From Treponema sp. (lineage in GTDB: Bacteria > Spirochaetota > Spirochaetia > Treponematales > Breznakiellaceae), in NCBI GenBank assembly GCA_031255645.1, contig JAIRSC010000093.1:1-33378 (forward strand): 33,378 nucleotides of DNA, read 5' to 3'. This document shows, piece by piece, positions 26,877-27,383 of the stretch. Within the stretch, counting starts at the first letter, position 1, and each line of letters opens with the position of its first letter. Below the pieces are notes generated by a model. That model was not told the DNA's origin. It searched no databases and was given only the letters and a program-made list of their open reading frames with translations. The position numbers and the translations under genes are program-made.

Positions 26877-26887
26877 GAACTCAGCCA

Positions 26888-26911
26888 GTTCCAAAAACTG
26901 AAGTTTTGGAA
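26888..26911. repeat. Dispersed TGAA-loop hairpin, copy 2
   Basis: GTTCCAAAAACTGAAGTTTTGGAA; one bulged A; lies between the tRNA promoter and tRNA. Confidence 0.85.
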
Positions 26912-26930
26912 TAGCCTCAACTACAAGCGC

Positions 26931-27003
26931 GGGGATATAGCTCAGTTGGTAGAGCGATAGGTTCGCAATCTATAGGCCAGGGGTTCGAATCCCCTTATCT
27001 CCA
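26931..27003 (+). tRNA. tRNA-Ala (anticodon CGC)
   Basis: 73 nt full cloverleaf: GGGGATA/TATCTCC acceptor with G3-U70 wobble (alanine identity element), D-arm GCTC/GAGC, anticodon stem ATAGG/TCTAT with loop TTCGCAA, T-arm AGGGG-TTCGAAT-CCCCT, discriminator A; CCA not encoded. Confidence 0.96.
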
Positions 27004-27161
27004 GAACGTTATCAGTACCCAGTAAAGGGGGGATTCGAACCGCAGCCTGCGCCGACCAACGGGAGGAAAAGGGGGCACGGACGCCCCCGGCAGCAGGCGA
27101 AGGCGGGCTGGAGGGAGCAAACAGGAAGTTTGCGACCGGAAGCCGAATCCCCTTATCTCCA
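26986..27161 (+). repeat. 18-bp exact direct repeat of the tRNA 3' end, period 158 bp
   Basis: CGAATCCCCTTATCTCCA at 26986-27003 (tRNA 3' end) and at 27144-27161. Confidence 0.95.
27027..27152 (+). other. Structured element within the 158-bp unit (candidate ncRNA or small mobile/relic element)
   Basis: Closed by GGGGATTCG (27029-27037) / CGAATCCCC (27144-27152). Inner arm GCCTGCGCC (27045-27053) / GGC-A-GCAGGC (27089-27098) enclosing GGGGGC-ACGGAC-GCCCCC (27071-27088). Second arm GCAAAC-AGGAA-GTTTGC (27117-27133). Confidence 0.5.
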
Positions 27162-27247
27162 TTATTTTATCAATAACCTGTGGCCTTTTTTCGATTAATC
27201 CGCCTTCCGGGCTTCCCCAAAAGGTATGTCTTGACCGGCGCGTCGTC

Positions 27248-27276: not shown

Positions 27277-27290
27277 TATCTCATCAGCTA

Positions 27291-27315
27291 GTTCCAAAAA
27301 CTGAAGTTTTGGAAC
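27291..27315. repeat. Dispersed TGAA-loop hairpin, copy 3
   Basis: GTTCCAAAAACTGAAGTTTTGGAAC, flanked by AGCT on both sides (27286-27319). Confidence 0.85.
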
Positions 27316-27383
27316 AGCTTCTCATAGAAAAGACGGTCAATTCGGGCTTCCCGATTGGCCCATGTTCATTTTGGAGGAATATA

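What the first reader, a model, noticed from the sequence alone, without database searches (positions are those of the whole stretch)
26986..27161. 158-bp structured unit downstream of tRNA-Ala(CGC) that duplicates the last 18 nt of the tRNA
Seen: CGAATCCCCTTATCTCCA, the exact tRNA 3' end including the discriminator A, recurs 158 bp downstream. The spacer also has an inverted copy of the T-arm and several nested stems, which a simple duplication would not give. Established: the E. coli tyrT locus has about 178-bp downstream repeats that each carry the 3' end of tRNA-Tyr (rtT RNA); tRNA 3' ends are also classic attB sites for integrases. Inference: this is an rtT-like trailer repeat, a tiny integrated or decayed element with attL/attR-type ends, or a tRNA-derived MITE. 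There is no integrase inside the unit, so it would be non-autonomous or a relic.
Basis: partly seen in the sequence, partly recalled or inferred. Interest (0 to 1): 0.75.

Follow-up and report, generated by a model that had tools for sequence, protein, structure and literature searches.

The report
Structured repeat duplicating tRNA 3' ends
Behind this bacterium's alanine tRNA gene sits one copy of a widespread family of small folded DNA repeats, not found in the RNA and paper libraries searched here, that settle behind tRNA genes and carry a copy of the last 18 letters of the tRNA they sit behind, which makes a decades-old oddity of E. coli (the tyrT repeats) look like one case of a general kind.

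Summary
CGAATCCCCTTATCTCCA (C56-N73 of tRNA-Ala) lies at 26986-27003 and 27144-27161, and an inverted T-arm lies at 27029-27041. The unit is one member of a family: 8 copies in this genome, copies in 47 of 61 genomes sampled from its family, and copies in Omnitrophota and a deltaproteobacterium. Of 194 distinct copies, 162 follow a tRNA gene on the same strand (18 isotypes, often in tandem). Nearly all carry their own host tRNA's 3' end and an inverted copy of its T-arm. A covariance model shows strong compensatory change (27 of 37 pairs). The second tRNA end is constrained: 0/234 differences in its acceptor part against 69/416 in the adjoining duplicated trailer. A congener of another carrier has an empty site. 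E. coli rtT, examined here, has the same architecture (tail, linker, inverted T-arm, hairpins, tail) but no detectable homology. Best reading: an rtT-type, non-autonomous structured repeat that inserts at the T-loop/3' end of tRNA genes and leaves the tRNA intact; enzyme unknown. TnpB-guided insertion is rejected; RT-driven insertion and a CsrA sponge are unsupported. Transcription and function are untested.

The parts
26931..27003 (+). host tRNA-Ala(CGC) gene
   Evidence: ARAGORN and Rfam RF00005, 74.3 bits
26986..27003 (+). tail 1: C56-N73 of the tRNA
   Evidence: identical to 27144-27161
27004..27027 (+). linker (trailer 1), variable between copies; weakly similar to 27162-27181
27029..27041 (+). 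inverted T-arm; 27029-27036 is the 5' strand of closing stem P1 (pairs with 27145-27152)
   Evidence: 13-nt perfect inverted repeat of 26982-26994; P1 covaries between copies
27028..27152 (+). structured element as matched by covariance model R1
   Evidence: 134.4 bits, but this copy is in the model's own alignment
27045..27098 (+). domain A: P2 (27045-27050/27093-27098), conserved P2.1 motif GCCGACCAACGGGAGGAAAAG, P3 hairpin 27071-27088 with loop ACGGAC
27106..27144 (+). domain B: P4 (27106-27109/27141-27144) and P5 hairpin 27117-27133 with loop AGGAA
27144..27161 (+). tail 2: second copy of C56-N73; its first nucleotides form the 3' strands of P4 and P1
27162..27181 (+). trailer 2, weakly similar to linker 1; extends the direct repeat to 38 nt at 82%
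   Evidence: on its own the trailer similarity is weak (z 2.3)

Best explanation
This is one copy of an rtT-type tRNA-tail repeat: a small, gene-less, structured element that enters a tRNA gene at the T-loop (T55|C56) or just behind its 3' end and ends up flanked by two copies of C56-N73. The copy next to the tRNA body keeps the tRNA functional; the distal copy closes the element's P1 stem with an inverted copy of the same T-arm. Shown: the architecture; same-strand placement behind tRNAs of 18 isotypes; tail and inverted arm tuned to the host tRNA; tandem arrays; an empty site in a congener of another carrier; conserved structure with compensatory changes; a bias to G.U over A.C pairs, consistent with the sense strand being the one that folds. 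Inferred: that copies spread as a non-autonomous mobile element using an enzyme supplied in trans; that the fold acts as RNA or sense-strand ssDNA; and that in the precursor the inverted arm can pair with either tail, giving two competing folds, which would explain why the distal tail stays identical to the tRNA through N73.
For: Multicopy in the genome, each intact copy behind a different tRNA with that tRNA's own tail. 162 of 194 copies follow a same-strand tRNA, none an opposite-strand one. 27 of 37 pairs show double-sided changes, 207 cells against 48 shuffled, 0/500. P1 5' strand matches its own tail 9.2/10 against 6.8/10 for others. Tail 2 constrained through N73. Empty site. Copy numbers from 0 to 21 within one genus and copies in other phyla. 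G.U over A.C, p = 0.001. Same architecture in E. coli rtT.
Against: No transposase or recombinase was identified; TnpB was not detected in any copy-bearing genome and reverse transcriptase not in two complete ones. Constraint on structure and on tail 2 at individual loci is more than a decaying selfish repeat should show. Some units lie behind a terminator-like hairpin of their tRNA (seen by eye), so co-transcription is not general. Duplicated trailers in some loci and an element-specific linker in others suggest more than one way of insertion or amplification. The empty site is a different locus from the window's.
Confidence: 0.55

Rival explanations
1. Host-functional trailer RNA: the unit is transcribed with the tRNA, released by 3' processing, and acts in trans, or tunes tRNA maturation through the two competing folds. 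Its spread reflects recruitment and horizontal transfer of tRNA regions rather than selfish mobility.
For: Strict same-strand placement behind tRNAs, compensatory changes, sense-strand bias, constraint on tail 2, tail-2 fold about 5 kcal/mol more stable in 94 of 97 loci; E. coli rtT is annotated as a small RNA.
Against: Zero copies in close congeners of copy-rich species; most copies in the deltaproteobacterium are not at tRNAs; terminator-like hairpins sit between tRNA and element at some loci.
Confidence: 0.25
2. Minimal att-flanked integrative element: a site-specific recombinase acting in trans inserts a circular unit at the T-loop, the two tails being attL and attR.
For: Tail identity runs from the T-loop to the tRNA end and stops there, as in tRNA-integrating elements; tandem arrays; in the G062 locus tail 1 plus linker looks inserted and tail 2 keeps the short ancestral spacer.
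Against: 48 distinct tails in use, and many loci duplicate the trailer as well, which a fixed attP would not bring; no recombinase gene in the unit.
Confidence: 0.1
3. CsrA-binding module: the P3 and P5 loops present GGA and the units together titrate CsrA, as CsrB/RsmZ RNAs do.
For: In Spirochaetota P3 loops read ANGGAN and P5 loops AGGAN closed by C-G, matching the reported CsrA/RsmE hairpin consensus (PMC7652899); csrA is present.
Against: The loops are not GGA in Omnitrophota copies; csrA is equally common in genomes without copies (13/14 against 41/47); stems are longer than SELEX-preferred ones; explains neither the tails nor P1.
Confidence: 0.07
4. Plain local duplication of the tRNA 3' end with chance hairpins.
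For: The direct repeat itself.
Against: The spacer is a conserved multicopy element and the inverted T-arm covaries with the host tRNA.
Confidence: 0.01

Closest known systems
RtT RNA (Rfam RF00391), the E. coli tyrT/tyrV 178-bp repeats
   Same: Behind a tRNA, same strand, tandem; each unit bounded by copies of the tRNA 3' end (19 nt with CCA); begins with an inverted T-arm (GGGGAAGGAT) that closes the unit; hairpin core.
   Different: No covariance-model match either way; different core; tail starts two nucleotides later; here known only at the tRNA-Tyr genes, whereas this family hosts 18 isotypes and several phyla; rtT carries the small ORF tpr, this unit none conserved.
tRNA-integrating islands and prophages (attL/attR at tRNA 3' ends)
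   Same: Identity block from the T-loop to the tRNA end; tRNA kept functional.
   Different: 100-200 bp, no genes, no integrase, many different tails and locus-specific linkers.
REP/MITE-type small bacterial repeats
   Same: Dispersed, palindromic, non-coding, non-autonomous.
   Different: Tied to tRNA genes; ends retuned to each host tRNA; 18-nt or longer target duplication; structure conserved with compensatory change.
CsrB/RsmZ-type CsrA-sequestering RNAs
   Same: GGA in hairpin loops in Spirochaetota copies.
   Different: GGA loops are not family-wide; the remaining architecture is foreign to that class.

Membership tests
RtT RNA (RF00391) | match to the RtT covariance model | tested here: not met
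   no RtT match in the window region even at E up to 5, nor in five loci at gathering threshold; E. coli units score 133-138 bits in the same search
RtT RNA (RF00391) | reverse test: E. coli units match this family's model | tested here: not met
   best 9.6 bits, E 0.07, filters off
rtT-type architecture (kind, not family) | tRNA - tail - linker - inverted T-arm - hairpins - tail, tandem | tested here: met
rtT-type architecture (kind, not family) | stable transcript processed from the tRNA precursor | not testable with these tools
   needs RNA-seq or northern
att-flanked integrative element | empty site with a single tail in a relative | tested here: met
   tRNA-Ser(gct) of G080 against G062; another locus than the window's
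att-flanked integrative element | integrase gene in the unit | tested here: not met
   no integrase-sized reading frame fits in the 158-bp unit; the one overlapping 100-aa ORF runs through the tRNA end on the other strand
att-flanked integrative element | excision circle | not testable with these tools
   needs read data
TnpB omega-RNA guide system | TnpB-like nuclease in the genome | tested here: not met
   PF07282 in 0 of 47 copy-bearing family genomes, 4 of 14 others
RT-mobilised retroelement | reverse transcriptase in copy-bearing genomes | tested here: inconclusive
   RVT_1 not detected in the complete genomes G062 (21 copies) and G030 (7 copies) but present in others
CsrB/RsmZ-type RNA | GGA in the hairpin loops throughout the family | tested here: not met
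   present in Spirochaetota, absent in Omnitrophota
CsrB/RsmZ-type RNA | CsrA binding | not testable with these tools
   needs binding assay

The most novel reading that the evidence does not exclude
A class of gene-less mobile RNAs or DNAs dedicated to tRNA genes: each copy remakes its closing stem from the T-arm of the tRNA it enters and duplicates that tRNA's 3' end, so that the precursor becomes a two-state RNA in which either tail can complete the tRNA. E. coli rtT would be a relic of the same class.
Probability: 0.3. Interest if true: 0.9.

Novelty: new variant of a known kind. Interest (0 to 1): 0.75.

Why it matters
The E. coli tyrT repeats have been known since the late 1970s as an isolated curiosity (from memory). 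Here the same architecture appears in at least three bacterial phyla, behind tRNAs of 18 isotypes, with a covarying closing stem that ties each copy to its host tRNA. That makes it testable whether such repeats move, how their ends become matched to each tRNA, and whether a precursor with two interchangeable 3' ends affects tRNA maturation. It also gives a covariance model for annotating a family that was found neither in Rfam 15 nor in the paper library.

Tried and rejected
Plain duplication: rejected, the spacer is a conserved multicopy element. TnpB-type guide RNA (structured scaffold plus an 18-nt guide matching the tRNA gene): attractive, rejected because TnpB was not detected in any of the 47 copy-bearing genomes. 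RT-driven insertion: not excluded, but RVT_1 was not detected in two complete copy-bearing genomes. CsrA sponge: the consensus fits in Spirochaetota and fails in Omnitrophota. Search for an autonomous version: non-tRNA copies in L114, L039 and L171 turned out to follow displaced 3' halves of tRNAs, probably island ends; the deltaproteobacterial repeat at contig ends shares only 140-380 bp and shows no gene of its own. Phage and plasmid collections: no match. IMG/VR pattern scans failed technically twice, so viral carriage is untested. Empty site for the window locus itself through the downstream BMP-lipoprotein gene: no relative keeps the tRNA next to it. Paper searches found no description of this family, but the library holds only part of the literature. 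A first test of tail-2 constraint pre-selected copies on the tail; it was redone on the acceptor part only, with trailers judged separately.

Full report
CHECK. The 18-nt repeat, its spacing and the inverted T-arm are as described, are not chance, and the tRNA ends at 27003. The unit folds with z = -4.4. Rfam has no family for it.

FAMILY. A DNA search of the same genome gave 7 places, a covariance search 8. Copies lie right behind different tRNAs (Ala, Pro, Val, Leu, His, Cys) and the intact ones repeat that tRNA's own 3' end; two others sit at or near contig ends. Thirty of 61 genomes (own plus relatives) match by DNA. From 28 copies I built an alignment and model R1: P1 to P5 plus a small conserved P2.1 hairpin, 96.5% of cells paired, 27 of 37 pairs with double-sided changes, 207 compensatory cells against 48 in shuffles (0/500). 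R1 finds copies in 47 of 61 genomes of the family and 25 of 199 sampled from the phylum. Within genus g54 one genome has 21 copies and another none.

TAXONOMY. An exact 19-mer of the core hits named genomes: Breznakiella homolactica, Brucepastera parasyntrophica, a Gracilinema caldarium MAG, many Treponema MAGs, several Omnitrophota and a deltaproteobacterium. R1 confirms these. Single hits elsewhere (for example Polynucleobacter, Maricaulis, Salipiger, Nitrospina, Chloroflexi) are not confirmed by R1 and are probably chance. Three Omnitrophota genomes have 13, 5 and 3 copies, nearly all of those read lying behind tRNAs. The deltaproteobacterium has 38 matches, one at tRNA-Pro and most away from tRNAs; several of these have direct repeats of their own.

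ANATOMY. Pooling loci gives 194 distinct copies. 162 have a same-strand tRNA within 700 nt upstream and 132 start within 90 nt of its 3' end; none follows an opposite-strand tRNA; of the 32 others, 20 lie within 400 nt of a contig end. Eighteen isotypes are hosted, tRNA-Ser most often. Order: tRNA body 1-55, tail (C56-N73), linker (the element starts 5-83 nt behind the tRNA), inverted T-arm (5' strand of P1), core, tail. Arrays repeat the whole unit (five copies among tRNA-Ser genes). The inverted arm matches its own tail 9.2/10 against 6.8/10 for other tails, and in about a quarter of copies reaches into the acceptor strand.

TAIL 2. Among copies whose T-arm part still matches, identity of the two tails is about 98% at nt 1-10 and 79-100% at nt 11-18 depending on the subset, then drops after N73. 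Where the trailers are recognisably duplicated too and have begun to differ, the acceptor part of tail 2 shows 0/234 differences against 69/416 in the next 16 nt (an earlier, pre-selected version is). So the distal tail is held to a tRNA 3' end although P1 usually uses only its first 9-10 nt. Related copies are counted as if independent, so the p-value is optimistic. In the window copy both tails are identical while the trailers have drifted.

EMPTY SITE. G080, with no copies, has tRNA-Ser(gct)-tail-TTTTTC-tRNA-Arg. G062, a congener with 21 copies (its 4,059,867-bp single contig suggests T. primitia ZAS-2, from memory), has tRNA-Ser(gct)-tail 1-61-nt linker-element-tail 2-TTAAA-tRNA-Arg. For the window locus no orthologous empty site was found.

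WHICH STRAND. Across 188 unique aligned copies G.U outnumbers A.C at paired positions 102 to 60 (p = 0.001; not corrected for relatedness), as expected if the tRNA-sense strand is the one that folds. Modelled energies put the fold in which tail 2 completes the tRNA, with tail 1 hairpinned to the inverted arm, about 5 kcal/mol below the alternative in 94 of 97 loci (window locus -95.2 against -93.1). Tail 1 is made first, so which form exists in cells is unknown.

KNOWN RELATIVE. I fetched E. coli tyrTV. Its rtT units carry AATCCTTCCCCCACCACCA at both ends and GGGGAAGGAT, the reverse complement of the T-arm 3' half, at the start of the core; the unit folds with that closing stem. R1 does not match it and RtT does not match ours. 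Same kind, no demonstrated kinship.

MECHANISM. I commit to a non-autonomous mobile repeat of rtT type (0.55) over a host trailer RNA (0.25), a recombinase-borne att element (0.10) and a CsrA module (0.07). TnpB and RVT_1 searches found no consistent driver. Shown: anatomy, structure, constraint, distribution, one empty site. Inferred: mobility, the enzyme, RNA-level action, the two-state precursor.

Noticed in passing
window 26881-26918 and 27284-27321: A second, unrelated 38-nt palindromic repeat (TTCCAAAAACTGAAGTTTTGGAA, copies 92% alike) brackets the tRNA and its element; a similar palindrome follows tRNA-Met in another genus (L014 2777-2800).
   Followed up: partly
L114 1840-2050 (Breznakiella homolactica), L039 1430-1640, L171 1390-1640: Elements follow 3' halves of tRNA-Met, tRNA-Thr and probably tRNA-Leu that begin about the anticodon loop: probably displaced far ends of genomic islands, with the element carried along.
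   Followed up: partly
G282 loci L203-L252 (deltaproteobacterium, JACRIV contigs): A REP-like version in 38 matches, mostly away from tRNAs, with an upstream box GAGCGAGAAYCCAACCG that covaries with the inverted arm and own direct repeats of about 30-40 nt (L221, L235, L238, L247).
   Followed up: partly
L029 237-361, L034 1479-1603: A sub-family without a T-arm tail, away from tRNAs in two genera; in L029 it lies just upstream of a start codon.
   Followed up: no
tRNA-Ser/Arg clusters, e.g. L014, L017, L031, L089: The Ser(tga)-Ser(gct)-Arg(gcg)-Ser(cga)-Ser(gga) cluster is the commonest home of the element; cores within a cluster are up to 99% alike with different linkers, suggesting local copying or gene conversion.
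   Followed up: partly
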